From the IMG/VR virus record IMGVR_UViG_3300047408_000281, positions 1 through 44,406 of that record: a stretch of DNA of 44,406 nucleotides. One strand, written 5' to 3'. Source of the DNA: a virus. The translations under genes were made by a program, and so were the position numbers. Numbering within the stretch: the first letter of the stretch is position 1; each line of letters begins with the position of its first letter. Shown piece after piece: positions 85-33,900 of this stretch. The notes under the pieces are model-generated. The model was given only the letters and a program-made list of their open reading frames with translations, searched no databases and had not been told where the DNA came from.

Positions 85-678
85 ATGACGACAGAGATCC
101 CCGACGAGATGACGCGCCATGACTACGCGCGCTATCGCGGCTGGTATCCCTCGTATCTCGTGCAGCTTGCCCAGGAAGGCCGGCTGGTGCTCACCGAGGA
201 CGGGAAGCGCGTTGTCGTGAAGGCGTCCGACGAGCTCATCGAGAAGACGCGCGACCCGAGCAAGGAAGGCGTGCGCGAGCGATGGGCGGCAGAACGCGCT
301 ACCACGCTCGCGACGCAGCTCGCGCTGGAAGCGGCAGGTGACGAGCCGCCGGCGCCGTCTGGGCAGGCGGGTGCCAGTGCAGTCCAGCCTCCGTCGCTCA
401 TGGACGTGCGCCGCGAGCTCATCACCGAGCAGGCGGCTGCATCGAAGCTGAAGCGCCTGGAGCTCGAGGGCCGCCTCATCGATCGCGAGACGGTGAGGCG
501 GACGGTGTTCGAGAAGACGCGGGTCGCGCGCAACGCGATCCTCGGCCTGGCCGAGCGGCTTCCGCCGCTCCTCGCCGCCGAGCCGTCCGAGGTGAAGATT
601 CGGGACATGCTGCAGGTCGAGTTCCGTCGCATCCTCGACGAGCTCGCCGACGGCGAAGAGCAAGCGACGAGGCAATAA
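85..678 (+). CDS. Terminase small subunit (putative)
   Basis: The 197-residue product lies directly before the large terminase, the usual place for the DNA-recognition subunit that docks the packaging motor on phage DNA. The N-terminal 60 residues (HDYARYRGWYPSYLVQLAQE region) look like a small DNA-binding winged-helix or Nu1-like domain. A linker rich in Ala and Pro follows, then a charged helical C-terminal half likely to oligomerise and contact the large subunit. It is the first gene of the late operon, and its stop is 3 bases before the next ATG. The assignment rests on position and domain pattern; the family is divergent. Confidence 0.75.
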   Translation: MTTEIPDEMTRHDYARYRGWYPSYLVQLAQEGRLVLTEDGKRVVVKASDELIEKTRDPSKEGVRERWAAERATTLATQLALEAAGDEPPAPSGQAGASAVQPPSLMDVRRELITEQAAASKLKRLELEGRLIDRETVRRTVFEKTRVARNAILGLAERLPPLLAAEPSEVKIRDMLQVEFRRILDELADGEEQATRQ

Positions 679-681
679 GCC

Positions 682-2661
682 ATGCTGGAAACTGCCGACC
701 AGGTCGTCGACGCGGCTTGGGCGGCAGGCTGGCGCCCAGACCCGATCCGCACCGTGAGCGATTGGGCCGACAAGCATCGCCGGCTTGCACCTGAAGGGTC
801 GTCCGAGCCCGGGCAGTGGCGCACGAGCCGCACGCCGTACCTGCGCGAGGTGATGGACTGCCTTTCGCCGCATCACCCGGCGCGCGAGGTCGTGATGATG
901 ACCTCGACGCAGATCGGCAAGACCGAGGTCGGGCTCAACTGGATCGGCTCCATGGTCGAGTGGAACCCGGGCCCGATGCTCGTGGTGCAGCCCACGTCGA
1001 ACGTGGCCAAGCGCTGGAGCAAGCAACGCCTGACCGGCATGATCCGCGAGACGCCGAGTCTGCGCAGGATCCTGGGCGAGAAGAGCAGGGACGCCGACAA
1101 CGCGACCTTCATGAAGGTCTTTCCCGGCGGCATGATCATCGTCGGGGGCGCCAACTCGGCGCCGGACCTATCGTCGATGCCGATCAAGTACCTCTTCCTG
1201 GACGAGGTCGATCGATACCCTGCCGACGTCGGCGCCGACAAGGAAGGCCGCGGCGAAGGCGACCCGGTGAAGCTCGCGGAACGGCGGACGTCGACCTTCC
1301 CGCAACGGAAGATCTTCAAGTGCTCGACGCCGACGATCGAGAGCCTGTCGGGCATCAACAAGGCCTGGCTCAACTCGGACCAGCGCCGCTACTTCGTCGC
1401 CTGTCCGCACTGCACCGAGCGCCAGGTGCTGCGCTGGGACAACCTGAAGTGGCCCGACGGGCGCCCGCAGGAGGCGCAGTACGTGTGCGAGCACTGCGGC
1501 GCCTTCATCGCCGAGCACCACAAGCCCGCGATGCTCGAGAACGGCGAATGGCGCGCGGCGGTGCCGGGGCGCGAGGTGGTGGGCTTCCACCTGAACGCGC
1601 TCTACACGCCGATCGGCCTCGGAGAATCGTGGGCCGAGCACGCGACGGAGTGGGAGCGCATCAAGAGCGATCCCGCGGCGCGCAAGGCCTTCACGAACAC
1701 GGTCCTCGGCGAATGCCACAAGGACCCGAACGAGAAGCTCGACTGGCAGCAGCTCCAGCAGCGCGCGGAATCGACGCCGATGCGCGTGCTGCCGAAGGGC
1801 TGCCTGGTGCTCACGCTGGGCGTGGACGTCCAGGGTAACCGCCTCGCGGTGCAGCTCGTCGGCTGGGGCCGCGAGGGGCGCAGCTGGGTGCTCGACTGGC
1901 TGGAGATCCCGGGAGACCCCACGCGGGACGACGTCTGGGAGAAGCTGGACGAGTACCGCCTGCAGCCGTTGGTGAACGCCTTCAACGTGCCGATGCGCGT
2001 GCTCGCGACCGCAGTGGACGCGGGATACCTGCAGGACCACGTGCTCAAGTACACGCGCACGCGCCGGCACGCCAACGTGTTCGCGGTGAAGGGTGTCGAC
2101 ACGGCGAGCAAGACGATCCTGTCGACGGCGACCAAGCCCGACAAGAACAAGCGCGGGCGGACCTCGAAGCGCAGCACGGACCTGTGGCTGGTGTCGAGCG
2201 GTGCCGCCAAGGAGCTCCTCTTCCTGCGCCTCAAGGGCGATGGGCAGACCGCGCACGCGCACGAGCGCATGGTGCGGTTTCCCGCGGGGCTGGGCGAGGA
2301 GTACTACACGCAGCTCACCGCCGAGATCTACGACCCGGTGAAGCGCCAGTGGGTCAAGCAGCAGGCGCGCAACGAAGCGCTCGACACGATGGTGTATGCG
2401 CTCGCGGCGACGTTCCACCCGAGCGTGCGGCTGCATGTCCTGCGCGAGCCCGACTGGGCGAAGCTGGAGAGCGTCCTCGAGCCGCAGGTGCGTGATCTCT
2501 TCAACCAGGTGCCGGCAGTGCCCGCGCCGCCCGCGCGGGAGGCCGAGCCGGTGCATACGCCTGCAGAACCCGAAGCGCCGGCCGAGAAGGCAGCCCCAAC
2601 CCCGAAGCCGGCCGCCGGCGGATGGATTTCGCCGCAGCGCAACTGGCTCAATCGTCGATAA
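682..2661 (+). CDS. Terminase large subunit, GpA family
   Basis: The 659-residue DNA-packaging ATPase/nuclease resembles lambda gpA (phage terminase GpA family). An adenine-binding and P-loop-like segment STQIGKTE is near residue 75. A Walker B-like YLFLDEVDRYP is near residue 175, followed by the coupling segment FKCSTPT. Two CxxC pairs (CPHC and CEHC, about residues 240-270) suggest a zinc-binding insert. The C-terminal half carries the acidic residues expected of an RNase H-like nuclease (LGVDVQGNRL, about residue 380). The Pro/Ala-rich tail is probably the portal-docking segment. Length is normal for the family. Confidence 0.95.
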   Translation: MLETADQVVDAAWAAGWRPDPIRTVSDWADKHRRLAPEGSSEPGQWRTSRTPYLREVMDCLSPHHPAREVVMMTSTQIGKTEVGLNWIGSMVEWNPGPMLVVQPTSNVAKRWSKQRLTGMIRETPSLRRILGEKSRDADNATFMKVFPGGMIIVGGANSAPDLSSMPIKYLFLDEVDRYPADVGADKEGRGEGDPVKLAERRTSTFPQRKIFKCSTPTIESLSGINKAWLNSDQRRYFVACPHCTERQVLRWDNLKWPDGRPQEAQYVCEHCGAFIAEHHKPAMLENGEWRAAVPGREVVGFHLNALYTPIGLGESWAEHATEWERIKSDPAARKAFTNTVLGECHKDPNEKLDWQQLQQRAESTPMRVLPKGCLVLTLGVDVQGNRLAVQLVGWGREGRSWVLDWLEIPGDPTRDDVWEKLDEYRLQPLVNAFNVPMRVLATAVDAGYLQDHVLKYTRTRRHANVFAVKGVDTASKTILSTATKPDKNKRGRTSKRSTDLWLVSSGAAKELLFLRLKGDGQTAHAHERMVRFPAGLGEEYYTQLTAEIYDPVKRQWVKQQARNEALDTMVYALAATFHPSVRLHVLREPDWAKLESVLEPQVRDLFNQVPAVPAPPAREAEPVHTPAEPEAPAEKAAPTPKPAAGGWISPQRNWLNRR

Positions 2662-2672
2662 GGGAGAAGCGA

Positions 2673-3257
2673 ATGGACCTGGGACGCCAGGAGCAGGAAA
2701 CCGCGATCAGGCTCAACCTGGGGTGCGGTCGGAACAAGGCGGAAGGCTTCGTGAACGTCGACAAATTCGGCGATCCGGACGTGCGCTGGGACCTGGAGCA
2801 GTTCCCGTGGCCCTGGCCGGACTCGAGCGTCGATGAAGTGAAGCTTATCCACGTTCTCGAGCACCTCGGGCAAGCTCCGGCGACCTTCATCGGGGTCATG
2901 CAGGAGCTCTACCGGGTGTGCCGCAACGGCGCCAGGGTGTTCGTGCACGTGCCGCACCCGCGCCACGACAACTTCCTCGGCGATCCCACGCACGTGCGCG
3001 TGGTAACGCCGCAGCTGCTGTCGCTCTTTTCGCGCAAGGAATGCGAGCGCTGGCAGGCCGAAGGGGCCGCGAACACGCCGCTCGCGCTCTACCACGGCGT
3101 CGATTTCGAGGTGCGCGACTGGGGTGTCGTGGTCGACCGCACGTACGAGGAGCTGCTCAGCCGCGGCGCCATGACGAAGGCACAGCTGCAGATCCTCATC
3201 CAGGAGCGCAACAACGTCGCGGTCGAGTATCACATCGAGCTCGAGGTGGTGAAATGA
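2673..3257 (+). CDS. SAM-dependent methyltransferase (type 11 like)
   Basis: The 194-residue protein has a class I SAM-binding motif LNLGCGRNK near residue 14. An acidic loop (NVDKFGDPDVRWD) and the post-motif VKLIHVLEHL follow, as in methyltransferase type 11 enzymes, which often act on sugars or small molecules. The ATG at 2673 is preceded by AGGGAGA; an upstream in-frame ATG lacks such a site. The stop overlaps the next ATG as ATGA, so the two genes are likely translationally coupled. It lies between terminase and head-tail genes, unusual for a packaging module, which points to a cargo cassette. The substrate is unknown. Confidence 0.8.
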   Translation: MDLGRQEQETAIRLNLGCGRNKAEGFVNVDKFGDPDVRWDLEQFPWPWPDSSVDEVKLIHVLEHLGQAPATFIGVMQELYRVCRNGARVFVHVPHPRHDNFLGDPTHVRVVTPQLLSLFSRKECERWQAEGAANTPLALYHGVDFEVRDWGVVVDRTYEELLSRGAMTKAQLQILIQERNNVAVEYHIELEVVK

Positions 3258-4849
3258 CCTGGCGGCCGGAAGTGCCCGCGGACTTCGCGGGCGAGGCCGC
3301 GAAGATCCGCTATCGGGCGATGCCGTACGCGAACGGCTGCGGCCTGGACGTTGCCTGCGGCCCCTGGAAGGTGTTCGCGAACGCGATCGGCATCGACGGC
3401 AACGCGTACGTCACGGCGGACAACCGCGGGCCCAGCCTCGCGATGGATTGCCGCACGCTGCCGTTCTTCGCGACAGGCGTCTTCGACTACGTGTTCAGCT
3501 CGCACTTCCTCGAGCACGTCGAGCACCCGCAGGCGGTACTGCGCGAGTGGTGGCGCGTCGTGAAGGAGGACGGGTACCTGATCCTGTACCTGCCGCACCG
3601 CGACCTCTATCCGCGGCGCGGGCAGCCCGGCGCCAATCCGGACCACAAGCACGATTTCGCGCCGGAGGACATCGTGCGCGCCATGCGCGGCGTGGGCGGC
3701 GGATGGATGCTGCTCGAGAACGAGGTGCGCGGCGAGGACGACGAGTACTCGTTCTTCCAGGTCTACCGCAAGAGAAGCGACCAGAACCAGATCGACGCCA
3801 GCGAGCGGCGTCGCCCGGAGAAGACCGCGGCCATCGTGCGGCCGGGCAACTTCGGCGACGCGATCTGGGCGGTGTCGATCGCGCGGCAGCTCAAGCTCGA
3901 GGGCTACCACGTGACCGCCTACGTCGAAGCGTTCGGCGAGGAGGTCCTGCGGCACGAGCCGGACATTGACCGCGTGATCTGCATGAACCGCGCCGCGGTG
4001 CCCGAGACCGAGTGGGGCAAGATGTGGGAGTCGGAGACGAAGCGCTACGACCGCTGGATCAACTTGACCCAGACCGTCGAGGTGCAGCTGCTCTCGGTGC
4101 CCGGGTCGCTCAACTACCACTTCCCGGATGCCACGCGGCGCTCCATCTGCAACCGCAACTACGTGGAGTTCATGCACGAGGTGGCGGGCGTGCCCTACGA
4201 GCTCGGCCAGCGCGTGTCGATGACATTCCCCGAGCGCCAATGGGCGCGCAGCGAGCGCGAGAAGCTGCGCGGCCGCGTCTTGGTGCTCTGCAACGGCGGC
4301 AGCACCGCGCCCAAGTGGTGGCCGTACGCGCCGGCGTTCGCGGGACTGCTCGCCGAGCTGGGCGTGCACGTCATGGTGATGGGCGACCTGAAGGGCCTCG
4401 AGTATCCGACAGGCCCGTTCGTGCACGTGTCAACCGGATGGACCATCCGGCAGTCGATCGCCTTCGCCCAGGAGGCCGATGCGGTCGTGGGGCAGGAGAC
4501 GGGGGTGCTCAACGCCGTGGCACTGGAGAACGTTGCCAAGGTCGTGATGCTCACGCACTCGACGGCGGAGAACCTCACGCGAGACTGGCACCGCACGATC
4601 GCGCTCCATGGTGACGTCGCGTGCTACCCGTGCCACCGGATCCACTACACGCACCAGCACTGCCCGCAGGACGAGACGACGAAGGCGGCGAAGTGCCAGG
4701 CGGCCATCCGCATCGAGACCGTCATGGAGGCGCTGCGGACCCTGGGTGTCGTCACGGACAGCGACATCGCAGCGCTCTCGGCACCGAGCGCGCCGGCCGT
4801 CGCCCAGACCGTCAAGATCATCCCGGCGCCCACGCGGGCGACGGCCTGA
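3254..4849 (+). CDS. Fused methyltransferase / GT9-like glycosyltransferase
   Basis: The 531-residue protein seems to join two enzymes. Residues 25-175 form a class I methyltransferase (GLDVACGPWKV motif I; FDYVFSSHFLEHVEHP as the motif II/III region). Residues 190-500 resemble glycosyltransferase family 9, the ADP-heptose:LPS heptosyltransferase group: the N-terminal VRPGNFGDAIW matches the GT9 nucleotide-binding start, and VVGQETGVLNAVA matches its C-terminal acceptor/donor loop. The last 40 residues are a low-complexity tail. It starts inside the stop codon of the preceding methyltransferase. A likely role is modification of a glycan on the host surface or on the virion; DNA-base modification is an alternative I cannot exclude. 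Confidence 0.75.
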   Translation: MTWRPEVPADFAGEAAKIRYRAMPYANGCGLDVACGPWKVFANAIGIDGNAYVTADNRGPSLAMDCRTLPFFATGVFDYVFSSHFLEHVEHPQAVLREWWRVVKEDGYLILYLPHRDLYPRRGQPGANPDHKHDFAPEDIVRAMRGVGGGWMLLENEVRGEDDEYSFFQVYRKRSDQNQIDASERRRPEKTAAIVRPGNFGDAIWAVSIARQLKLEGYHVTAYVEAFGEEVLRHEPDIDRVICMNRAAVPETEWGKMWESETKRYDRWINLTQTVEVQLLSVPGSLNYHFPDATRRSICNRNYVEFMHEVAGVPYELGQRVSMTFPERQWARSEREKLRGRVLVLCNGGSTAPKWWPYAPAFAGLLAELGVHVMVMGDLKGLEYPTGPFVHVSTGWTIRQSIAFAQEADAVVGQETGVLNAVALENVAKVVMLTHSTAENLTRDWHRTIALHGDVACYPCHRIHYTHQHCPQDETTKAAKCQAAIRIETVMEALRTLGVVTDSDIAALSAPSAPAVAQTVKIIPAPTRATA

Positions 4850-4869: not shown

Positions 4870-5079
4870 ATGGCCTTCAGCACCAGCGACCTTACCAACC
4901 TCGAGCAGGCGATCGTCAAGGGCGAGCTCGAGGTTGTGTTCGACGGCAAGAGCGTCAAGTACCAGAGCTTCGACGACCTGCGCAAGCGCTACGAATTCGT
5001 GCGCGACCAGCTCATCGCTACGGGTGCCATCGCCTCCAGCCGCAAGCGCGTCTCGTACGCGTCCTTCTCGAAGGATTGA
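4870..5079 (+). CDS. gpW-like head-tail joining protein
   Basis: The 69-residue protein resembles the lambda gpW family, which plugs the portal and forms the head-tail connector. Family-like features are the N-terminal helix (TSDLTNLEQAIVKGE), the beta hairpin (LEVVFDGKSVKYQSF) and the second helix ending with basic residues. It sits directly before the portal gene, as in many lambdoid phages. Its start follows a CAAGGACC stretch. Confidence 0.85.
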   Translation: MAFSTSDLTNLEQAIVKGELEVVFDGKSVKYQSFDDLRKRYEFVRDQLIATGAIASSRKRVSYASFSKD

Positions 5080-5081
5080 CC

Positions 5082-6647
5082 GTGAACCTCCTGGATCGCG
5101 CCATCGGCTGGGTTGCGCCGGAAGCGGGCCTGCGCCGGTCGCAGGCGCGCGCCACGCTGACACTCGTGCGCGCCTACGAGGGGGCCGCGATCGGCCGGCG
5201 CACGTCCGGCTGGAAGACCTCCAGCGCCTCGGGCAACATGGAGATCCTGTCGGCGGGGATGCGGCTGCGCGACCGGGCGCGCGACCTCGTGCGCAACAAC
5301 CCGTATGCGAAGCGCGCGATCGCGTGCATCGTCGGCAACTCGGTCGGTACCGGCATCACGCTGGGCATTGATGGGCAGATCGCGAAGATCTGGGACCTGT
5401 GGTGCGCCGAAAGCGACTACGCCGGCGAGCTGGACATCTACGGGCAGCAGGCGCTCGCCACGCGCGCCATGGTGGAGAGCGGCGGATCCCTCATCGTGCG
5501 CCGGCGCCTGGGCGGCAATGACGCGGCCAGCATGGCTTCGGGCGTGCCGTTGCAGATCCAGGTGCTCGAGATCGACCACCTCGACGCGCTCAAGTACGGC
5601 GTGGCCGCGAACGGCAATTTCATCGTCTCCGGCATCGAGGTCGACAAGTACGGCCGCCGGATCGCGTATTGGCTCTATCCGCAGCATCCCGGTGACGTGC
5701 CGTTCTTCGTGCGCTCGCTCACGAGCGAGCGGTTCCTGGCGGAGGACGTGATCCACCTCTTCGAGAAGGTGGAGAACCGGCCGGGCGTGCTCCAGGGAGT
5801 CCCGAAGCTGGGCGCCTCGATCATCAAGCTGCGCGACCTCGACGAGTACAACGAGGCGCTGCTGGTCAAGAAAAAGATCGAGGCCTGCTTCGCCGCCTTC
5901 GTCACCACGAACGACGAGTCGAAGACCATCAGCGACAAGGTCACCGACAACCCGGACGACGCCGCGGCGGGCGGCAGCACGCGCCAGGAGGAGCTCGCAC
6001 CCGGGCTCATCAACTACCTGCGCCCGGACGAGAGTGTCACCTTCGCGGACCCGAGTGCGATCGCCGCGGACTCGTTCACCGTCGACCAGCTGCACGCGAT
6101 TGCGGTGGGCGCGGGCGTCACCTACGAGCAGCTCACGGGGGACCTCTCGCGCGTCAACTACTCGTCCACGCGCTTCGGGCGGCAGGAATTCAAGATCCTG
6201 ATCGAGCAGATGCGCTGGCTCACGATCATCCCGATGGGCCTCGAGCGCGTGTACCGCTGGTTCGAGGAAGCGGCCAACATGGCCGGCAAGGTGCGCACGC
6301 GCGGCTATGACCACAAGTGGACGCCGCCGCGGTGGGAATACGTGAATCCGAAGGAGGACGTCGAGACGGACCTCCTCGAGCTGCGCGCGAAGCTGGCATC
6401 GCACTCCGAGAAGGTCCGCGAGCGGGGGCAGGATCCCGTGAAGGTCTATGCCGAGATCGCCGCGGACCAGGAGACCTTCGCCGAGCTCGACATCGAGCCG
6501 GACTATGGTTCGAAGATCCAGACGACGCCGCAGCCGGCGACGGCAGCGCCGGCCGCGACAACGGATTCGAATGCGGCCGACGCCGCGGATGCAAATGCGA
6601 CTGGTGGTGACGCAGGGGCAGGAGACGCAGCGGCAGGCGACGCATGA
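5082..6647 (+). CDS. Portal protein, lambda gpB family
   Basis: The 521-residue portal forms the dodecameric DNA channel at one capsid vertex. Family-like segments are NNPYAKRAIACIVGNSVGTG (about residues 70-90), the wing region (IQVLEIDHLD) and GVTYEQLTGDLSRVNYSS near residue 350, which is highly typical of lambda-type portals. It starts with GTG at 5082, preceded by AAGGA 7 bases upstream; no ATG is suitably placed. The last 50 residues are Ala/Asp-rich and low complexity. Its stop overlaps the next gene as ATGA. Confidence 0.95.
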   Translation: MNLLDRAIGWVAPEAGLRRSQARATLTLVRAYEGAAIGRRTSGWKTSSASGNMEILSAGMRLRDRARDLVRNNPYAKRAIACIVGNSVGTGITLGIDGQIAKIWDLWCAESDYAGELDIYGQQALATRAMVESGGSLIVRRRLGGNDAASMASGVPLQIQVLEIDHLDALKYGVAANGNFIVSGIEVDKYGRRIAYWLYPQHPGDVPFFVRSLTSERFLAEDVIHLFEKVENRPGVLQGVPKLGASIIKLRDLDEYNEALLVKKKIEACFAAFVTTNDESKTISDKVTDNPDDAAAGGSTRQEELAPGLINYLRPDESVTFADPSAIAADSFTVDQLHAIAVGAGVTYEQLTGDLSRVNYSSTRFGRQEFKILIEQMRWLTIIPMGLERVYRWFEEAANMAGKVRTRGYDHKWTPPRWEYVNPKEDVETDLLELRAKLASHSEKVRERGQDPVKVYAEIAADQETFAELDIEPDYGSKIQTTPQPATAAPAATTDSNAADAADANATGGDAGAGDAAAGDA

Positions 6648-7177
6648 GCCCGGTCCCGCGCAGCCACCTGCCGGAGCCCGCGCTCGTCGACCTGCTCGAG
6701 ATCGCGGTAGCCTGCCCGCCCGGGGCCTTCGCGGAGTTCGGCGTGTACCAGGGCGGCACCGCGTGGCACCTGATGGAGATCGCGCGGCGGCAAGCCCGGC
6801 GGCTCTACCTCTTCGATACGTTCAGCGGCATGCCCTTCTCGGGCCGGTACGACCGGCACCAGGTGGGCGAGTTCGGGGACACGAGCCTCGCCCTGGTCCG
6901 GGAGATCCTGCCGGAGGCGATCATCGTGCCGGGCGTCTTCCCGGAGAGTGCCGAAGGGGTCGGGATGGAACGCCTTGCCTTCGTGCACGTCGACGCGGAC
7001 CAGTACGCGAGCATCGCGGCCGCCACGCGCGTCTTTCCGCCGCTGATGGTGCCGGGCGGGGTCATCGTCTTCGACGACTACGGCCTGCTTCCCGGTGCCA
7101 CGTATGCGATCGACGACTGGGGCGAGCCCATCGAGTTCACGAGGACCAGCCGGGCCCTGTGGCGAAAGCCCGCCTGA
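6644..7177 (+). CDS. TylF/MacrocinOMT-like methyltransferase
   Basis: The 177-residue SAM-dependent O-methyltransferase resembles the TylF (macrocin O-methyltransferase) group. It has FAEFGVYQGGTA as motif I (about residue 29), LYLFDTFSGMP as motif II, and FVHVDADQY followed by GGVIVFDDYG as the C-terminal metal and catalytic loop. The family methylates sugar hydroxyls. It is coupled to the portal by an ATGA overlap and is the third methyltransferase in this late region. It may act with the 2673-4849 genes on a surface sugar; the substrate is inferred only from family. Confidence 0.8.
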   Translation: MSPVPRSHLPEPALVDLLEIAVACPPGAFAEFGVYQGGTAWHLMEIARRQARRLYLFDTFSGMPFSGRYDRHQVGEFGDTSLALVREILPEAIIVPGVFPESAEGVGMERLAFVHVDADQYASIAAATRVFPPLMVPGGVIVFDDYGLLPGATYAIDDWGEPIEFTRTSRALWRKPA

Positions 7178-7905: not shown

Positions 7906-7965
7906 GACAGGACACGGGAGCTGTCGTGGTGGTTCCTCGGGGTGGCTCCCGCCCATCGATCCATT

Positions 7966-7990
7966 GAAGCCCGGCCATGCGCCGGGCTTC
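7966..7990 (+). terminator. Hairpin upstream of protease-capsid gene
   Basis: A perfect 10-bp stem (GAAGCCCGGC / GCCGGGCTTC) with a 5-base loop is followed by CCTTTCC. It closely resembles the hairpin at 7198-7223. It ends 19 bases before the protease-capsid start, so it could attenuate or stabilise the capsid mRNA. Confidence 0.5.
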
Positions 7991-8008
7991 CCTTTCCTGG
8001 AGACCCCC

Positions 8009-10021
8009 ATGGATCACAGCGAGACCCGCAGGCTCGAACTCCCGATGCAGCTGCGGCTGGCCCCGGTCGGCAGCGTCGACGAGACGACCCGCACGGTCGA
8101 CGTCACCTGGTCGACGGGCGCCGGTGTGGCGCGCTTCGACTGGTGGACGGGCGAGCGCTACACCGAGGAGCTCGCGATGGACGCCGGGAGCATCCGGATG
8201 ACGCGGCTACAGACCGGCGCGCCTGTCCTCGCCGCCCACAACCAGTACGACCTGGGTGCGGTGATCGGCGTGGTCGAGCGGGCCTCGATCGAGCGCGGAC
8301 AGGGAATCGCGACGGTGCGCTTCGCCTCGGGCGACGAGTGCGCCGACATGGCGTGGAGCAAGGTCCGGCAAGGAATCCTGCGCAACGTCTCCGTGGGCTA
8401 CATCGTCCACCGCTACCAGAAGACCGAAGCGACGGACGGCACTCCGGCGGTCTGGCGCGCGATCGACTGGGAGCCCTGCGAGGTCTCGTTCGTGGCCGTG
8501 CCGGCGGATGCCGGCGCGCAAGTCCGCGCCGCGGTGCCGCCCGAGGTGCTCGCGAAGGTCCGCACCTTCCCCTGCGAATTCATCACCACCACAACGCCGG
8601 CGGCTGCCGGTTCCACGACCCCGACTCGAAAGGAGTCCCACATGACCGACCAGGTCACGCAAGGCGGCAATCCGGCGGCCGAGCACCACGCCGAAAACGA
8701 AGCTCCGCAGCAGATCGCGGAGCGTGCCGCCCAGGCCGAACGCGAGCGCATCGGCGATATCCAGCGCCGCTGCCGGGACGCCGGCATGACGGAAGCGTTC
8801 GCGGCGGCCCTCGTCGCCGACGGCAGGAGTGTCGATGCGGCGTGCCGCGCGATCGTGGACGAGGTCGCGAAGCTGAAGGCGGCCCCCGCGATCGTCGGCA
8901 CCCGCGCCACCATCGTCGAAGACGGGCGGGTGAAGCTGCGCCAGCTGGTCTCCGCGGCGATCGTGCACCGCATGGATCCCAGGGCGCAGCTGCCCGAGGG
9001 CGCCGGCGAATTCCGCTACATGTCGTTCGTGCGCCTCGCCGAGGAGGTGCTCGGACACGAAGGCGTGCACGTGCGCGGGCTTTCGCGCATGCAGATCTCC
9101 GAGCGCGCGCTGCACAGCACGAGCGACTTCCCGAACATCCTGGCAGACGCCTTCAACAAGCGCCTGCGCCAGTCCTACGTCGAGAACCAGCCGAGCTACA
9201 CGGTGTGGGCGCGCCGCGCCCCGAACGCGCCGGACTTCAAGACGATCAATGTCACGACGCTCTCCTCCGCGCCGGACCTGCAGAAGGTCCTGGAAGGCGG
9301 CGAGATCAAGTCGGGCAGCATGTCGGACGGCAAGGAAACCTACCAGGTCTTCACCTACGGGCGCATCGTCGGCATCTCGCGCCAGGCGCTGGTGAACGAC
9401 GACCTCTCCGCCTTCGACCGCATCCCGCGCCTCCTGGGCAACGCCGCACGCCGCCTCGAGAACCGCACCGTGTACGGCGTGCTGACCGCGAACGCGGCCC
9501 TCTCCGACACCGGCGCACTCTTCAACGTGACCGCGGTCACGACAGCCGGCGGCCACGCGAACTTCGCGACCGGCACCGGCTCCGTGCTCGGCACGGGCTC
9601 GCTCAAGAGCGGGCGCGCCGCGATGCGCGTCCAAAAGGGCCTCGCCGCCGAGGAGCTCAACGTGGCACCCGCCTACCTCATCGTGCCGGCCGCGCTCGAG
9701 CAGGACGCCTACCAGCTCACAAGCAACCTGTACACGCCGACCAAGCCCTCGGACGTGAACGAATTCCGCATCGGCGGGCGCACGGCGCTCGCACCGGTCG
9801 TGGAGGCGGTGCTCGATGCCACCAGCACCACGGCCTGGTACATCGCGGCGGACAGCACCCAGATCGACACGATCGAGTACTGCTTCCTCGACGGCAGCGA
9901 CGGCCTCTACCTCGAGAACCAGATCGGCTTCGACGTCGACGGCATGCGGATAAAGGCGCGCCTCGACTTCGCCGCCGCCGCGATCGATTTTCGGGGGCTC
10001 TACTCCGGCAAAGGATCGTAG
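8009..10021 (+). CDS. Prohead protease-major capsid protein fusion
   Basis: The 670-residue fusion has residues 1-175 resembling an HK97-type prohead protease (S78). Likely catalytic residues are His77 (VLAAHNQYD), Ser128 (LRNVSVGY) and Glu158 (WEPCEVSFVAVP). A Thr/Pro linker follows. Residues from about 212 form a scaffold-like helical delta region (ERAAQAERERIGDIQRRC) and then an HK97-fold capsid (QVFTYGRIVGISRQALVNDD; IEYCFLDG near the C-terminus). The ATG at 8009 is preceded by GGAG; the longer in-frame start at 7964 runs through a hairpin and is less likely. A strong internal start at 8642 may produce the capsid domain separately. Cleavage of the linker or delta region by the protease is expected from the family. 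Confidence 0.9.
   Translation: MDHSETRRLELPMQLRLAPVGSVDETTRTVDVTWSTGAGVARFDWWTGERYTEELAMDAGSIRMTRLQTGAPVLAAHNQYDLGAVIGVVERASIERGQGIATVRFASGDECADMAWSKVRQGILRNVSVGYIVHRYQKTEATDGTPAVWRAIDWEPCEVSFVAVPADAGAQVRAAVPPEVLAKVRTFPCEFITTTTPAAAGSTTPTRKESHMTDQVTQGGNPAAEHHAENEAPQQIAERAAQAERERIGDIQRRCRDAGMTEAFAAALVADGRSVDAACRAIVDEVAKLKAAPAIVGTRATIVEDGRVKLRQLVSAAIVHRMDPRAQLPEGAGEFRYMSFVRLAEEVLGHEGVHVRGLSRMQISERALHSTSDFPNILADAFNKRLRQSYVENQPSYTVWARRAPNAPDFKTINVTTLSSAPDLQKVLEGGEIKSGSMSDGKETYQVFTYGRIVGISRQALVNDDLSAFDRIPRLLGNAARRLENRTVYGVLTANAALSDTGALFNVTAVTTAGGHANFATGTGSVLGTGSLKSGRAAMRVQKGLAAEELNVAPAYLIVPAALEQDAYQLTSNLYTPTKPSDVNEFRIGGRTALAPVVEAVLDATSTTAWYIAADSTQIDTIEYCFLDGSDGLYLENQIGFDVDGMRIKARLDFAAAAIDFRGLYSGKGS
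8630..8644 (+). promoter_or_regulatory. Internal ribosome binding site and start of capsid domain
   Basis: AAGGAG at 8630-8635 lies 6 bases before an in-frame ATG at 8642 (MTDQVTQGG). This is among the best ribosome sites in the window and sits exactly at the protease/capsid boundary. It would give a 459-residue capsid precursor alongside the fusion. Confidence 0.65.
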
Positions 10022-10089: not shown

Positions 10090-10446
10090 ATGAACAACTT
10101 TATCGGCGCCGGCGGCAACGTGACCGTGGTGATGCCGTATGCCCGCACCGTCGGCCAAGTGGCCAAGGTCGGCTCGATCATTGGCGTGTCATACAACACC
10201 TACGCCTCCGGAGCCACGGGCGTGCTCACGCGCACCGGCATCTTCACGAACCTCGCCAAGGCGAGCGGCGCCACCGAAGTCTGGGCCCAGGGCGACGTCC
10301 TCTACTGGGACGACAGCGCCAAGAACCTCACCAAGAACTCGACCGGCAACACGCGGGCGGGCACGGTGATCGATGCGCTCGGCACCGGCGGCACCGGCGT
10401 CACGGTGTCGGGGCAGGTGCTGCTGGCACCCACCAACGGCGCCTAA
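10090..10446 (+). CDS. DUF2190 capsid-associated protein
   Basis: The 118-residue protein resembles DUF2190 family proteins, found directly after major capsid genes and thought to decorate or cement the capsid. The N-terminal FIGAGGNVTVVMPYARTVGQVAKVGSII and the central WAQGDVLYWDD are family-like. The Gly/Thr-rich beta composition fits a small beta-barrel. AAAGGAAG lies upstream of the ATG. Confidence 0.85.
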   Translation: MNNFIGAGGNVTVVMPYARTVGQVAKVGSIIGVSYNTYASGATGVLTRTGIFTNLAKASGATEVWAQGDVLYWDDSAKNLTKNSTGNTRAGTVIDALGTGGTGVTVSGQVLLAPTNGA

Positions 10447-25999: not shown

Positions 26000-27574
26000 A
26001 TGCAAGTCGTCGCTGACCGCGTCAAGGAATCGAGCCTCTCCACCGGGACGGGAAACCTCCTGCTGGCTGGGGCCGTGGCTGGCTTCCGTGCGTTTGCCTC
26101 GCAGTGCGCCGTGGGTGATGCGTTCTACTACGCGATCGAGGCACAAACCGGCACGGGCATGCCGTCCGGCGAATGGGAAGTCGGCAGCGGCACCTACTCG
26201 GCGGCGAATACCTTGACGCGCTCACAAGTGCTGTCCTCGAGCAACGCGGGCGCGCTCGTGAATTTTTCGGCGGGCACGAAGCACGTCTGGATCGACGTAC
26301 CCGCTTACCAGCTAGCGGCATTGTCCAACAAGAACAGGCAAACCCTTGCTGTGCTCGGGGATTCGTTCATCCAGCGCAACATGGCGTCGCTCGCTTCCAA
26401 CGTCTACTCGACCCCAACTTGGGGAATCATCCTCCTCACCAACATGCTCCTGGGCAACGCCTTCGACATCGTGAACATCGATGGCGTGAGCGGCACCACG
26501 AGCGCATCGTTCCTGTCGCGCCTCGCCGCCTCCGTGCTCGCGTTCCGCCCGCGCTACGCGTACATCCAAGGCACGGTGAACGACATCCTCTCGGGAACGC
26601 CGCAGACGCTGGCGCAGTCGATCGCCAACTATTCGGCCATGTTCGCGCAGTGCAACGCGGCCGGGATCACGGTCATCACGAACACGGTCACGCCCTTCGC
26701 TGGATTGAACACTGCGGCCAAGAGGACGCAGTGGCTGCGATTCAATGCCTGGCTTATGAACGTTGCGCCAAGCTTGTACGACGTCATTGTCCTGAGGAAC
26801 GATTACCAGTACCTCGATCCGGCTGGGGTAACTTGCCAACCTAATGCGGCCTTCCTCGCGATTGATCCGACTCATCCTGCGGTTAGGGATTCGTTCACGC
26901 TGGCGCAAAGTAACGCGGCGACTCTTCGTGCCCTTGGCATCGGGGCGACTCTTCCGTCTCCGTTCTTGTCCGGCATTGGCGTTACTGGGTCCGAGGATGA
27001 TGCCATCCATCCCAATCCGATCAACTTCGGGGCGGCCGGCGTCAAGCAGGGCGCAGGCACCACCGGTACCGTTGCGACGACGATGTCGGTCGGGACCACC
27101 AGCAGCCTCGGGACAGCTGTGTGCAGCAAGGTGCCGCGCTCTGACGGGCCCGGCGAGTGGCAGCAGGTCGTCTACACGCCGTCAGCGGCTAACCAGATCT
27201 GCACGTACCAGAATTTCGGCGCGGCCATCGGGCTCGGCAACGCGCAGCCCGGCGACGTGGTTTCGTTCTTCCAGGAGTTTGAGATCGATTCGTCCACGCC
27301 TGCCGCGAATTTCCGCTGGGTGGGTGCCCAGATCACCTTTGTGGGCGGCGCGTACAACGCCGCGGCCTTCCCGATCAACTCCGGGTTCGATAATCTCGGC
27401 GGCCTCAGCGGCGTGAACCTGCGAGGCGTCATTCGGACGCCGCCCGTGGCGATCCCGGCCGGGACCACGGGCATGTTCCTGCTAGCCAACCTGCATGGCG
27501 GCGGTGCCGGGCTCCCGATTACCGCGCGCTACGGGCAGGCAGCGTTCCGGAACCTTTCTCGTCAAGGGTCGTAA
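26000..27574 (+). CDS. Tail fibre with SGNH/GDSL hydrolase domain
   Basis: The 524-residue protein starts like many tail fibres (ADRVKESSLSTGTGNLLLAGA...FYYAIEAQTGTGMPSGEWEVG). From about residue 113 it carries an SGNH hydrolase: block I GDSFIQRN (Ser122), block III GTVNDI (Asn194) and block V DPTHP (Asp289, His292). Residues 350-524 form a Thr/Gly-rich beta domain. Such enzymes remove acetyl groups from capsule or O-antigen during adsorption; that activity is inferred from the family. AAAGGA lies before the ATG. Confidence 0.85.
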   Translation: MQVVADRVKESSLSTGTGNLLLAGAVAGFRAFASQCAVGDAFYYAIEAQTGTGMPSGEWEVGSGTYSAANTLTRSQVLSSSNAGALVNFSAGTKHVWIDVPAYQLAALSNKNRQTLAVLGDSFIQRNMASLASNVYSTPTWGIILLTNMLLGNAFDIVNIDGVSGTTSASFLSRLAASVLAFRPRYAYIQGTVNDILSGTPQTLAQSIANYSAMFAQCNAAGITVITNTVTPFAGLNTAAKRTQWLRFNAWLMNVAPSLYDVIVLRNDYQYLDPAGVTCQPNAAFLAIDPTHPAVRDSFTLAQSNAATLRALGIGATLPSPFLSGIGVTGSEDDAIHPNPINFGAAGVKQGAGTTGTVATTMSVGTTSSLGTAVCSKVPRSDGPGEWQQVVYTPSAANQICTYQNFGAAIGLGNAQPGDVVSFFQEFEIDSSTPAANFRWVGAQITFVGGAYNAAAFPINSGFDNLGGLSGVNLRGVIRTPPVAIPAGTTGMFLLANLHGGGAGLPITARYGQAAFRNLSRQGS

Positions 27575-28115: not shown

Positions 28116-28622
28116 CTACTTGCCGCCCAGCAGCTGCACCAGGGCGCGCGCGCCGGCGAGATCCGCGCCGTCCTGGCACTCCTGAGTCTCGGTCAGGGAC
28201 ACGGGCTTCGCGGTCTGCGGGTCGAGGCCGATCCACTCAAGGGTCATCGAGCACTTCGCCGTCGGCTCGGTGGCATTGTTAGCCGCGTTCCGCTGGTCCG
28301 GGTAATCGCAGCGGCCGAGATCCACGCGCCAGACGTAGCCGGCGATGCAGGCGGGCGAAGACGACGAGCTGCTCGAGGTGGCCGGATCGGCCGGCCTCGA
28401 CGGCAGCGGTGCGAAGCACGCGACCCCACCGCCCTCCATGGGCTTCGACGTGGTGCCAGGTGGGCAGCTCGCGGCGACACAGGTGCCCGATAGGACATTC
28501 GGGATGCCGGCCGGGCATTCGACGTCACGGCACACCGGGCCTCGCGACGTGGCAGCGCAGGTGTAGATGGCTTGGGCTTCGAAAGACAGCGATAGGGCAA
28601 ATACGGCGCACAGCATCTTCAT
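28116..28622 (-). CDS. Secreted Cys-rich protein coupled to integrase
   Basis: The 168-residue protein has a signal peptide (MLCAVFALSLSFEAQA, cut about residue 18) and about a dozen Cys, including CRDVECPAG and CVAASCPPGT, then a Ser-rich linker and another Cys-containing part (CDYPDQRN...CSMTLEWIGLD). Its ATG overlaps the integrase stop (ATGA); GGGGAG is upstream. As the last gene of the leftward operon it may be a lysogenic-conversion protein acting in the periplasm or cell surface. No family is recognised. Confidence 0.65.
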   Translation of the reverse strand: MKMLCAVFALSLSFEAQAIYTCAATSRGPVCRDVECPAGIPNVLSGTCVAASCPPGTTSKPMEGGGVACFAPLPSRPADPATSSSSSSSPACIAGYVWRVDLGRCDYPDQRNAANNATEPTAKCSMTLEWIGLDPQTAKPVSLTETQECQDGADLAGARALVQLLGGK

Positions 28623-30205
28623 GGTGTTGTTCTCCCCTTGTGTTGGCATATGGTTCCAGGCGGTCGACGCAAACGGAGCCGCGGCACGACGAGCTCGGCC
28701 CCGTCCGCCCAGAATTTGTCCGGGTTAGCGTCTTGTCCCTGTGGGGACGCCACCTTAACCCGGCTAAGCGTCAGCCGGTACGTGATCCGGCCGCTTCTGG
28801 TGGCCGGATCGAGCTCGATCCGGCCTATCCAGGCGCGCAGGACGTCCTTCAGGGCGTCGCGATCGAGCTCGCCCATGTCCGAGGCCATCCGCTGCAGTAG
28901 CGCGGCTACAGCGGCCTCGTCGACGGCCTCAAGCACCTTCACGCGCTCGCCGGCGTCTTCGGCGCGCATGACCCTCTCGGCGGCGTCCTGCCGCTCGATC
29001 TCGAGCTCGTCCAGCCTGGCCAGCAGCGGCCGGGGCTCGCGGGCGTGCTCGACCAATCCCATCAGCTTCCTGATCCGCTTCTCCACGTCGGCCAAGGCAG
29101 CGCGAGCCGCCTCGAGCTCGCTCCGGTCCTGCAGGTTCTCCTGCAGGGCGCGGATTTCGCGCACAAACGCCTGCACGATCTCCGGCGAGCCCAGATCGAC
29201 CGGGAGCTGCTCCAGCACGGAGCGTTCGAGCAATGCCGCGTCGATCGAGCCGCCACGCGTGGTGTAGCAGTCGCGGTCGCCCCACCACGGCTTGCCGTCC
29301 GGGCGCACGAGCAGGCCCGAGAGCAGGTAGGTGCCGCCGCGGTTGCGCCGGGCCGCGTGGGCGCCCTTTTCAAGCCGGGTGAGAATGGCCTCTGCCTCCG
29401 CGTCGCTCACGAGCGCCTGGTGCGTCCCGCGCTGAATTTGCCATTCCGAACGAGGGCGCCGGCTGCCGCTGGCCTGGCTGTCCTTCGGGCGGCGCGTGTT
29501 CCAGGTGGTGTGGCCAGCGTAGGTTAGCGCGTTCCATTCGACATCGACAAGGCCGGTCCGGGTGATAGGCAGGCGCAATTGCCGCGCGATCGCGGAGCCG
29601 GCCTGGCCCGCAGATCGGGCGCGCAGGTAGGTGGCGATCGCCGGTGCTAGCGCCTCGTCGGGGACCAGGCGCGACTTCTCGACGGCGGCACCATTACGCA
29701 CCGCCGCGGTCGCCACGCGCTCGAAGCGATAGCCGATCGGCGCCCGCCCGCCGGCGCGGAAGCCGCGGCGCACGTTCTCGGCCATGCCGGCCAAGCCCTT
29801 CTCCCGGCTCATGAGGCTGTGCACCTCGTCCATGGCCTGGAAGGTGTTCTGCAGGATCACGGATGTGATCGGGTCGCTCTCCGGGATCCTCACGTAGAGG
29901 ATCGACACGCCGCGCTTCTTCGCCTCGTGCTGCAACGACTGGGCGATGTAGGTGCGCCTTGCGATGCGGCTTGTGTCGTAGGCGAGGATCACGTTCCATG
30001 CGCGGCCGCGGGCGGACAGGTCGCGCAGGAGCCGCTGGTAGCCGGGGCGTTGGTCGTCCTTGCCGGACTCGACGGCGTCGGCGTACTCACCGATGATCGG
30101 GAGGTTCTTCGCCTGGGCGAGCTCGGCCAACGCCCGCCGCTGGGCGTCGAGGGACACGTCTGCGCGGTCCTTGCTCGACCGTAGGTACAGGACTGCTGCT
30201 CGCAT
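28619..30205 (-). CDS. Large serine recombinase (integrase)
   Basis: The 528-residue protein has an N-terminal resolvase domain (YLRSSKD with catalytic Ser11; DQRPGYQRLLRDL; VILAYDTSRIAR), a recombinase domain (about 150-260; GGRAPIGYRF) and a C-terminal coiled coil (about 350-420, LEAARAALADVEKRI). It should catalyse integration and, with a directionality factor, excision. In the zinc-ribbon segment (YLLSGLLVRPDGKPWWGDRDCYTTRGG) the usual CxxC knuckle is missing, with only one Cys. GGAG is 8 bases before the ATG. No att core could be identified. Confidence 0.9.
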   Translation of the reverse strand: MRAAVLYLRSSKDRADVSLDAQRRALAELAQAKNLPIIGEYADAVESGKDDQRPGYQRLLRDLSARGRAWNVILAYDTSRIARRTYIAQSLQHEAKKRGVSILYVRIPESDPITSVILQNTFQAMDEVHSLMSREKGLAGMAENVRRGFRAGGRAPIGYRFERVATAAVRNGAAVEKSRLVPDEALAPAIATYLRARSAGQAGSAIARQLRLPITRTGLVDVEWNALTYAGHTTWNTRRPKDSQASGSRRPRSEWQIQRGTHQALVSDAEAEAILTRLEKGAHAARRNRGGTYLLSGLLVRPDGKPWWGDRDCYTTRGGSIDAALLERSVLEQLPVDLGSPEIVQAFVREIRALQENLQDRSELEAARAALADVEKRIRKLMGLVEHAREPRPLLARLDELEIERQDAAERVMRAEDAGERVKVLEAVDEAAVAALLQRMASDMGELDRDALKDVLRAWIGRIELDPATRSGRITYRLTLSRVKVASPQGQDANPDKFWADGAELVVPRLRLRRPPGTICQHKGRTTP

Positions 30206-31076: not shown

Positions 31077-32141
31077 TCAGCGAAATACCTTGGTGAGCGT
31101 GCGGTTTACAGCGTGCCCGCGGCGGCGCACCAGGCGCGCGAGCAGCTCGCGATCGTGGCGGTTGGCGGTGGCCTGGCGCATCAGGCCGAAGTAGCTATTC
31201 GCCGTCGCGAAGACGTCCGCCGGCGAGGCCTCGGCGGTGCGTCGCAGCGCCTCGCTGAACGTGCGCCGGCGGATGCGCCGGTGCCAAGGCTTGAGGACCT
31301 GGCCCACGAAGTCGATGCCGCGCGCGATCGGTTGCAGCACCGTCTTGCGGGGATTCAATTCGACCGCGAGCTCGCGCGGCAGGAAGGCCTCGATCTCCGC
31401 GAGGGTTGCCCGCAGCCACGCCGGCGACTCGTGCAGGAGCACGAAGTCATCTACATAGCGGACATAGCGACGCACGTGCAGCTGGTGCTTGGCGAACTGG
31501 TCGAGCCTGTCGAGGTAGATGTTGGCGAAGAACTGGCTCGATAGGTTGCCGATCGGAAGCCCCAAGTGCGCGGGTTGGTTCGTGAGGCGTTTGTGAGCGG
31601 GCACCAGGCGCAACTGCGACGCCGGGCAGCGCATCTCGACATCGGTCCGTGGATCGTGGAAGAGTATCTGCAGCGTGAGCTCGCGCCACCACGGCTCGTG
31701 GATCCGTGGCTCGAGGAGGCCGGCGAGGATGCGCTTGTCGATCGCCACGAAGAAGTTGGCGACGTCGCACTTCAGGTACCAGCCCGCGCGCGACCAGTTG
31801 GCGGTGAGGCTGCGCACGTGGTGCTCCAGGCGGTGCGCCGCGTAGAGCGTCCCGCGGCCGCGGATGCATGCACACGTGTCGACGCTGAACGAGCGCTCGA
31901 AGCGCGGCCCGATGCGGTTGTAGAGCATGTGATGCACGATGCGATCGCGGAAGGCGGCCGCCCACACCTCGCGCGGCTTGGGCCGCGTGACCACGAAGCA
32001 GATCGACCGGCCCGGCGTGTAGCTGCCGCTGGCCAGCTCGTCGAAGAGCCCGACCAGGTTGCGCTCGAGGTGCATCTCGAAGGCGAGCGCGCTCTTCGTG
32101 TTGCGCTTGTTGCGGCGGCAGTCGTAGTACGCCGCCACCAA
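31077..32141 (-). CDS. DGR reverse transcriptase (RT), start uncertain
   Basis: Retroelement RT with motifs in order: DRIVHHMLYNRIG (domain 2a type), WYLKCDVANFFVAIDK (domain 3, first catalytic Asp), GLPIGNLSSQFFANIYLDRLD (the DGR-type IGxxxSQ signature, about 31532-31552) and RYVDDFVLLHE (YVDD active site, about 31446-31457), then the domain 5-7 segment ARGIDFVGQVLKP. The conserved part begins at FDELVAAYYD. I give TTG 32141 as the nearest usable start; the frame is open to ATG 32495, running through the template repeat. There is no Shine-Dalgarno match for 32141, so the true start is unresolved. Its role is adenine-mutagenising cDNA synthesis from the TR RNA, with Avd. Confidence 0.9.
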   Translation of the reverse strand: MVAAYYDCRRNKRNTKSALAFEMHLERNLVGLFDELASGSYTPGRSICFVVTRPKPREVWAAAFRDRIVHHMLYNRIGPRFERSFSVDTCACIRGRGTLYAAHRLEHHVRSLTANWSRAGWYLKCDVANFFVAIDKRILAGLLEPRIHEPWWRELTLQILFHDPRTDVEMRCPASQLRLVPAHKRLTNQPAHLGLPIGNLSSQFFANIYLDRLDQFAKHQLHVRRYVRYVDDFVLLHESPAWLRATLAEIEAFLPRELAVELNPRKTVLQPIARGIDFVGQVLKPWHRRIRRRTFSEALRRTAEASPADVFATANSYFGLMRQATANRHDRELLARLVRRRGHAVNRTLTKVFR

Positions 32142-32180
32142 CTCATCGAAGGAAGGTCCAGCATGGTCTACCGCGTCTCG

Positions 32181-32289
32181 ATCTGCGGACGGCCCGGGCC
32201 CGGAGCTCGTTGTCCTTGTGGTTGTTGTTCTGGTTGCCGTTGTTGAAGTTCTGGTACCAGGCGTAGGCCTCGTTGCCGGCGTACTGCGT
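32181..32289 (-). repeat. DGR template repeat (TR)
   Basis: The 109-bp TR lies between RT and Avd. On the coding sense (minus strand) it contains 33 adenines and nine AAC codons, and would read as TQYAGNEAYAWYQNFNNG and on to NELRARAVRR in the VR frame. Its 3' end (sense) is the GC-rich CTCCGGGCCCGGGCCGTCCG, identical in both VRs and the candidate initiation-of-mutagenic-homing region. The TR is expected to be transcribed with the flanking 32142-32458 sequence as the DGR RNA. Confidence 0.95.
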
Positions 32290-32458
32290 CCATTCGTGCT
32301 ATCCACGTCGACCCGCCGAAGGCCTCGGCCGATCAGCGGATCGACTGCGCCGGACCGGGCGCGGCCGGAGCCGCCGATGTCCGTGGCGCGCATGGCGGTG
32401 GCCTCGTGGGCCAGCGGCACGACCAGATTGTTTCCCACGGGCATGATCGCCTTGACGG
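32290..32458 (-). other. Spacer between Avd and TR
   Basis: The 169 bases on the upstream side of the TR hold no clear gene. The RT frame stays open through them (Arg/Thr/Gly-rich reading from ATG 32495), but composition suggests this is the 5' part of the DGR template RNA, not protein. No terminator is seen. Confidence 0.5.
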
Positions 32459-32815
32459 TCATGCGGCAGGGGACTTCGCGGAGTACTTGCGCCACCCGGT
32501 GGCCTGCTTGCCGATCACGGCCGTGAGCTCGATTGCGCGTGCGTGATGCTTCACGGCGATGAGGCTCATGTCCTTCGCGAGCCTGAAAAGCAGCTCAGCG
32601 ACCTGGAGGCGCTCGAGCAGTCGATCGAGGTGCGGCACCTTGTCCGCAGCAGCGTTCGCGCGGTAGATGAGCACCACGAGCTCGAGGCACTCCTCGCGTA
32701 CCTTGGCGCCCATGCTGGCCTTGAAGTCGCGCGGCATGTGTCGCGTGATCTCCGTGGCCAGCACGAGCAGCTGGTACGTGACCTGGTAGATCGGCAGGGT
32801 GGAGTGAAGCGCCAT
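32459..32815 (-). CDS. avd: Avd-like DGR accessory protein
   Basis: The 118-residue basic protein is the right size for Avd, the pentameric four-helix-bundle partner that binds RT and the template RNA. Its sequence is all helix (PIYQVTYQLLVLATEITRHM; MGAKVREECLELVVLIYRAN; HLDRLLERLQVAELLFRLAKDM; HARAIELTAVIGKQATGWRK), with the family-like YDLLxxIxRxxxxFPRxxK pattern seen here as TYQLLVLATEITRHMPRDFK. It lies between VR target gene and TR as in classical DGRs. Confidence 0.9.
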   Translation of the reverse strand: MALHSTLPIYQVTYQLLVLATEITRHMPRDFKASMGAKVREECLELVVLIYRANAAADKVPHLDRLLERLQVAELLFRLAKDMSLIAVKHHARAIELTAVIGKQATGWRKYSAKSPAA

Positions 32816-33239: not shown

Positions 33240-33277
33240 GGACTGCCTCCTTGCGAAATGGGTGAATGGATGAAGGG

Positions 33278-33880: not shown

Positions 33881-33900
33881 TGATGCTCCTTGATAGGTGG

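What the first reader, a model, noticed from the sequence alone, without database searches (positions are those of the whole stretch)
2673..4849. Methyltransferase plus methyltransferase-GT9 fusion inside the packaging/head module
Two coupled genes between terminase and gpW encode a methyltransferase and a two-domain protein with a second methyltransferase and a GT9-like heptosyltransferase domain. Such a fusion in the terminase-portal interval is unusual. Inference: it remodels host LPS (receptor masking, conversion) or modifies virion glycans.
Basis: partly seen in the sequence, partly recalled or inferred. Interest (0 to 1): 0.7.

Follow-up and report, generated by a model that had tools for sequence, protein, structure and literature searches.

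The report
Phage head-module methyltransferase–heptosyltransferase-like fusion enzyme
This phage carries, inside the block of genes that builds its head, a two-in-one enzyme that probably attaches a sugar and methylates it, and hundreds of uncultured phages of at least three head types keep the same enzyme beside their head genes, which suggests that they sugar-coat their own particles rather than the host.

Summary
Gene A (2673-3257, 194 aa) is a class I methyltransferase. Gene B (3254-4849, 531 aa, ATGA overlap) is a methyltransferase fused to a GT9-fold domain (model pLDDT 90.5; Z 22.8 to a GT9 enzyme, 21.6 to WaaF). It is no artefact: 206 IMG/VR stretches encode relatives, and the 80 kept match over most of the protein at 40-59% identity, one at 100%. 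Apart from four weak methyltransferase-domain matches, none was found in 50,697 phage records. In 91 of 98 loci holding the fusion it follows a major capsid gene. In one SU10-like podovirus group, fetched by capsid sequence alone, all 39 contigs with a complete capsid-to-neck interval contain it there. Its tree splits exactly by virion lineage. Unfused GT9 genes occupy the same slot in two Thermodesulfobacteriota prophages. The slot also holds GT2 glycosyltransferases, TylF-type sugar O-methyltransferases and fibre-like genes. I favour glycosylation plus methylation of virion proteins (0.55) over LPS remodelling (0.2). Donor, acceptor and activity are unproven.

The parts
85..678 (+). terminase small subunit (context)
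   Evidence: phrog_57 E 5.7e-24
682..2661 (+). terminase large subunit, gpA type (context)
   Evidence: PF05876, PF20454
2673..3257 (+). gene A: class I SAM-dependent methyltransferase, 194 aa
   Evidence: PF08241 21.2 bits at cut-off 21.2; phrog_6636 E 4.8e-11; model pLDDT 74 with methyltransferase matches
3254..4849 (+). gene B: methyltransferase-GT9 fusion, 531 aa; ATGA overlap with gene A
3254..3787 (+). gene B, methyltransferase domain (residues 1-178)
   Evidence: PF08241 E 1.4e-12; Z about 15 to class I methyltransferases
3812..4765 (+). gene B, GT9-fold domain (residues 187-504)
   Evidence: Z 22.8 to 3tov, 21.6 to WaaF 1psw
3857..3859 (+). Asp202 of the GD motif, lines up with the GD of 3tov/WaaF; WaaC catalytic base is D13
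   Evidence: 56 of 56; alignment; PMC5713226
4313..4315 (+). Lys354, lines up with the conserved Lys of WaaF; WaaC K192
   Evidence: 56 of 56; alignment
4496..4498 (+). Glu415, at the place of the Asp of 3tov/WaaF (WaaC D261): Glu in all 56 phage proteins
4622..4696 (+). four invariant cysteines CxxC-x9-C-x10-C (C457, C460, C470, C481), putative metal finger
   Evidence: 56 of 56; a CxPC..C..C motif is in 50 of 60 sampled GT9-type ORFs
4870..5079 (+). gpW-like head-tail adaptor Ad1 (context)
   Evidence: phrog_2545 E 5.2e-16
5082..6647 (+). portal protein (context)
   Evidence: PF05136 E 7e-96
6644..7177 (+). TylF-type O-methyltransferase, 177 aa; probable member of the same glycan module
   Evidence: phrog_6608 E 1.9e-10; TylF profile (includes this sequence) E 2e-79; 34% to mycobacteriophage GT/MT proteins
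8009..10021 (+). protease-major head protein fusion (candidate acceptor)
   Evidence: phrog_4523 E 6.9e-214 over ORF 7964-10021
10090..10446 (+). phage cement (decoration) protein (candidate acceptor)
   Evidence: PF09956 E 1.6e-16

Best explanation
Gene B makes a soluble two-domain enzyme of the late (head) operon. Its GT9 domain transfers a sugar, probably heptose from the host's ADP-heptose pool, onto a protein of the assembling virion (major head protein, cement/decoration protein or a head-borne fibre), and its methyltransferase domain methylates that sugar. Gene A and the TylF-type gene at 6644-7177 would add further methyl groups. The particle thus carries a methylated glycan. Shown by computation: folds, conserved catalytic positions, fusion, co-occurrence and synteny with capsid genes. 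Inferred: activity, donor, acceptor, order of steps and benefit (shielding of the particle, stability, or adhesion).
For: GT9 fold and catalytic positions conserved. 91 of 98 fusion loci follow a capsid gene, at 4-300 bp in most of the siphovirus type. Contigs fetched by the SU10-like capsid alone: 39 of 39 complete MCP-to-neck intervals hold the gene there, behaviour of a core late gene. Tree of 56 fusions: three fully supported clades, one per virion lineage, no switch between them. Unfused tandem GT9s in the same slot in two Thermodesulfobacteriota prophages and split MT + GT ORFs in others. Same slot also holds GT2 (PF00535), TylF O-methyltransferase (PF05711) and fibre/spike or virion structural proteins. 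TylF found in 13 of 107 fusion contigs and 0 of 94 relatives without it, in all three lineages, the window included. The window's TylF-type protein matches mycobacteriophage gp108-type GT/MT proteins, next to two more glycosyltransferase genes; related cluster F phage Che8 has its capsid glycosylated by its own GT (PMC12363180).
Against: No biochemical or mass data. In the window's own lineage the pair sits between TerL and gpW, a junction that in relatives is empty or carries unrelated cargo. Siphovirus capsid relatives mostly lack it (52 of 61 complete intervals), so it is not needed by that capsid type. GT9 enzymes with known function mostly act on LPS core. The capsid probes were built from loci that have the gene, so 39 of 39 holds for close capsid relatives; isolated Vibrio and E. 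coli phages with 50% identical capsids lack it. Contigs are not independent samples.
Confidence: 0.55

Rival explanations
1. Late LPS remodelling: the enzyme adds and methylates a heptose (or like sugar) on the host LPS core during infection or lysogeny, to mask the receptor, exclude other phages or free progeny from debris.
For: GT9 enzymes WaaC/WaaF/WaaQ are LPS core heptosyltransferases and the domain is closest in fold to them. Carriers with intact copies lie mostly in Gram-negative bacteria. GT2 genes in the slot weakly match GtrB-like phrog_841. The annotators of P. aeruginosa prophages with adjacent GT9 + MT genes suggested O-antigen or DNA modification (PMC10449497).
Against: Genes for lysogenic conversion are usually accessory and lie outside the head operon; here the gene is in every complete interval of one podovirus group and its tree follows virion type. 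No GtrA or GT2 gene in the window. One relative lies on a contig binned to Conexibacter, a Gram-positive (L100), though binning may be wrong.
Confidence: 0.2
2. Modification of the tail, neck or receptor-binding fibre rather than the capsid: the glycan tunes adhesion.
For: In the podovirus slot fibre/spike-like genes lie between capsid gene and fusion gene; head-closure genes follow it.
Against: No fibre gene lies next to the fusion in most siphovirus-type loci or in the window; the constant neighbour is the capsid gene.
Confidence: 0.12
3. DNA or nucleotide modification of phage DNA against restriction.
For: Phage GT-B enzymes that glucosylate DNA exist (T4; from general knowledge); position next to the terminase in the window.
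Against: No thymidylate synthase/dCMP hydroxymethylase-like gene in the record. GT9 and small-molecule methyltransferase signatures, TylF partner. Position next to capsid, not replication, genes.
Confidence: 0.05
4. Fusion protein is a chance join or a sequencing artefact of two host genes.
For: Window protein alone has no PF01075 hit.
Against: 206 related stretches, full-length open fusions in many contigs, invariant catalytic residues.
Confidence: 0.01

Closest known systems
GT9 LPS heptosyltransferases WaaF / WaaC and Veillonella GT9 (1psw, 2h1h, 3tov)
   Same: GT-B fold of the C-terminal half, GD motif, conserved Lys, four-cysteine motif common in cellular GT9s
   Different: fused to a methyltransferase, Glu in place of the conserved Asp (WaaC D261), encoded in phage head operons, 13-18% identity
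TibC/AAH autotransporter O-heptosyltransferases (BAHT, TIGR04414)
   Same: GT9-like fold (Z 18.7); four-cysteine finger at a like place; precedent that GT9-like enzymes put heptose on proteins
   Different: no TIGR04414 match; no N-terminal beta-barrel; the finger is shared by most GT9s so is no special link
Mycobacteriophage virion glycosylation (Che8 gp110, Corndog gp38, Llama gp108-110 island)
   Same: phage-encoded glycosyltransferases; a GT joined to a TylF-type methyltransferase (Llama gp108); TylF part related to window 6644-7177
   Different: GT is GT2-like, not GT9; island lies at the right end of the genome, not in the head operon
P. aeruginosa prophage vB_PaeS-D14C GT9 + methyltransferase pair (BK061477, 23423-24818)
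   Same: GT9 and methyltransferase genes side by side within the head-to-tail gene block
   Different: two separate genes, only remotely similar; function untested, authors suggested DNA or O-antigen

Membership tests
GT9 (CAZy GT9 / PF01075) | GT-B fold like WaaC/WaaF | tested here: met
   model residues 187-504, Z 22.8 (3tov), 21.6 (1psw), 19.9 (WaaC)
GT9 (CAZy GT9 / PF01075) | catalytic Asp (WaaC D13) and Lys (K192) | tested here: met
   D202 and K354 in 56 of 56; aligned with 3tov/1psw by HMMER
GT9 (CAZy GT9 / PF01075) | third residue D261 | tested here: inconclusive
   Glu415 in 56 of 56 where 3tov/1psw have Asp: conservative change
GT9 (CAZy GT9 / PF01075) | match to the PF01075 model | tested here: inconclusive
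   no hit for the window protein; 30 of 56 relatives hit at E<=0.1, best 6.8e-8
GT9 (CAZy GT9 / PF01075) | uses ADP-heptose | not testable with these tools
   needs enzymology
Class I SAM methyltransferase (PF08241) | model match and Rossmann fold | tested here: met
   gene B 48.5 bits (cut-off 21.2), Z about 15; gene A 21.2 bits at cut-off, methyltransferase-only fold matches
TibC/AAH BAHT | TIGR04414 match | tested here: not met
   not among NCBIfam hits up to E 10
TibC/AAH BAHT | N-terminal beta-barrel before the GT domain | tested here: not met
   N-terminal half is a methyltransferase
Gtr-type O-antigen conversion cassette | GtrA flippase and GtrB (GT2) | tested here: not met
   no PF04138 or PF00535 in the 44-kb record; record may be incomplete
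Phage virion self-glycosylation | phage-encoded glycosyltransferase tied to the virion gene module | tested here: met
Phage virion self-glycosylation | structural protein carries the glycan and loses it without the gene | not testable with these tools
   needs mass spectrometry and a deletion

The most novel reading that the evidence does not exclude
A bifunctional GT9-methyltransferase installs a methylated heptose on the capsid as a fixed, core step of particle maturation in a large uncultured phage group of Gram-negative hosts: a protein-glycosylation system of phage heads unrelated to the mycobacteriophage one, spread over three virion lineages.
Probability: 0.3. Interest if true: 0.8.

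Novelty: new variant of a known kind. Interest (0 to 1): 0.6.

Why it matters
Glycosylated phage particles are documented mainly in mycobacteriophages. If this reading holds, head glycosylation with a methylated heptose-type sugar is common in environmental phages of Gram-negative bacteria and was overlooked because none of the isolated phages held here carries the fusion. It would affect capsid stability, particle adhesion and recognition, and it can be tested in carrier prophages of culturable soil bacteria (Paraburkholderia, Aromatoleum).

Tried and rejected
(1) I first took the four invariant cysteines as a link to the TibC iron finger and so to protein heptosylation; a sample of GT9-type ORFs from cellular genomes showed the motif in 50 of 60, so it supports GT9 membership only. 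(2) A tblastn of the GT domain and of an unfused GT against 50,697 phage records found nothing; the P. aeruginosa GT9 + MT pair was found through the literature and is too remote to be called homologous at domain level beyond a weak GT9 score. (3) Prevalence in Burkholderiales genomes: 1 of 399, the query genome itself, so no host-side conclusion. (4) Gene A has too few relatives for a confident model (4 sequences, pLDDT 74). (5) TerL-gpW junction cargo in relatives was checked for other glycan genes: none obvious; one carries an ATPase/DUF3732 gene. (6) The mycobacteriophage virion glycosylation paper itself (Freeman 2023) is not held; cited through PMC12363180.

Full report
What is there. 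The window opens with a packaging/head module on the + strand: terminase small subunit (85-678), large subunit (682-2661), gene A (2673-3257), gene B (3254-4849), a gpW-like adaptor (4870-5079), portal (5082-6647). Gene B starts inside the stop of gene A (ATGA). Gene A scores at the Methyltransf_11 cut-off and matches phrog_6636; gene B has a clear Methyltransf_11 domain at residues 28-111. The rest of gene B has no Pfam hit of its own, but 30 of 56 relatives hit PF01075 (GT9).

Fold. An alignment of 56 relatives gave a confident model of gene B (mean pLDDT 90.5, pTM 0.88). Foldseek and VIA-align place residues 187-504 on GT9 enzymes (Veillonella GT9 Z 22.8, WaaF 21.6, WaaC 19.9, TibC 18.7) and the N-terminal half on class I methyltransferases (Z up to 15.7). 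The GD-motif Asp (D202) and Lys354 are in all 56 sequences and line up with 3tov and WaaF in a sequence profile alignment; in WaaC the equivalents D13 and K192 are the proposed catalytic base and a residue needed for chemistry (PMC5713226). The third residue, Asp in 3tov and WaaF, is Glu415 in all 56. The model of gene A rests on four sequences (pLDDT 74) and matches only methyltransferases.

Reality and spread. 206 stretches of IMG/VR encode relatives of gene B; the best 80 were kept, nearly all over residues 1 to about 494, at 40-59% identity, plus one at 100%. Seventeen loci with matches over most of the protein lie in bacterial genome contigs, mostly Betaproteobacteria, and include cultured isolates (Paraburkholderia sp. 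C35, P. rhynchosiae, Aromatoleum anaerobium). Among 50,697 phage records there are only four weak matches, all to the methyltransferase half, and none to the GT half. A sample of 399 Burkholderiales species genomes held it only in the reference genome.

Where it sits. I clustered genes around the fusion and annotated the clusters. Three arrangements emerge. Siphovirus type: lambda-type portal, protease-capsid fusion, MT-GT9, head closure Hc1, tail terminator, tape measure. Podovirus type: SU10-like portal, scaffold-like gene, capsid, small gene, MT-GT9, neck genes. Window type (with L003 and L004): TerL, gene A, MT-GT9, gpW, portal. In 91 of 98 loci the fusion follows a capsid gene. A tree of 56 fusions gives three fully supported groups, one per arrangement, with the least possible number of label changes. 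So the enzyme has been inherited with the virion module.

Tests fetched without using the enzyme. Contigs fetched by the SU10-like capsid: all 39 in which the interval from capsid to the next neck gene is complete hold the fusion (in two cases as separate MT and GT ORFs); none lacks it. The probe came from carriers, so this describes close capsid relatives; isolated Vibrio and E. coli phages with about 50% identical capsids lack the gene. Contigs fetched by the protease-capsid protein: 9 of 61 complete intervals hold it and 52 do not, most with a gap of a few hundred bases. Contigs fetched by the window's TerL: 68 TerL-portal intervals without it against the 3 known with it; several of the 68 carry other cargo at the same junction.

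Neighbours. The podovirus slot also holds GT2 glycosyltransferases (PF00535), TylF-type O-methyltransferases (PF05711), a spike-like protein with a pectate-lyase-like fold and a virion structural protein family. A TylF profile finds the gene in 13 of 107 fusion contigs of 8 kb or more and 0 of 94 related contigs without it (Fisher p 2e-4, not corrected for relatedness); hits occur in all three lineages and include the window at 6644-7177, between portal and capsid (the profile includes the window sequence). In isolated phages that protein matches only cluster F mycobacteriophage proteins annotated glycosyltransferase/methyltransferase, for example Llama gp108, which is followed by two more glycosyltransferase genes. 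In the related phage Che8 a glycosyltransferase is needed for capsid glycosylation, and glycosylation shields particles from antibodies (PMC12363180). Prophages L238/L239 of Thermodesulfobacteriota carry unfused GT9 genes in the same slot; L239 has two in tandem, and L238 has one with a second cut by the contig end.

Mechanism. I infer that gene B adds a sugar, most likely heptose given the GT9 fold and Gram-negative hosts, to a virion protein and methylates it, with gene A and the TylF-type enzyme adding methyl groups. The head protein (8009-10021) and cement protein (10090-10446) are the candidate acceptors in the window. Donor, acceptor and activity are not shown. LPS remodelling remains possible, because known GT9 enzymes mostly act there.

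Correction made on the way. The four invariant cysteines recall the iron finger of TibC, a protein heptosyltransferase (PMC4358343), but 50 of 60 sampled GT9-type ORFs carry a like motif. They support GT9 membership only, and the TibC family model does not match.

Noticed in passing
window 31077-32495 (-), 32178-32289, 32852-32963, 33286-33397: Probable diversity-generating retroelement: reverse transcriptase (phrog_1423 E 7e-118, PF00078) with one template-like repeat and two variable-like repeats. 18 of 23 and 18 of 19 mismatches fall on T of the first copy (A on the RT strand). The two variable copies lie at the 3' ends of minus-strand ORFs 32844-33641 and 33278-34006.
   Followed up: partly
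   Followed up: yes
L090:8115-8399 and L242:14734-15061: Group I introns (RF00028) interrupt the SU10-like capsid gene in two prophages, in Aromatoleum and a Thermodesulfobacteriota MAG.
   Followed up: partly
L443:3692-7370 and L428:2343-5313 (TerL-gpW junction of relatives): The TerL-gpW/portal junction of window-like phages is a cargo site: other contigs carry unrelated genes there, including an AAA/DUF3732 protein that looks like a defence gene.
   Followed up: no
window 28619-30205 (-) and 26000-27574 (+): Serine-recombinase-type integrase (phrog_95) and a GDSL lipase/acylhydrolase-like protein (PF13472) in the late region.
   Followed up: no
model of gene B, residues 187-500: The GT9 half also matches a subunit of the plant chloroplast NDH supercomplex (7wff_a, Z 19.3), which hints that this subunit has a GT9-like fold.
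   Followed up: no
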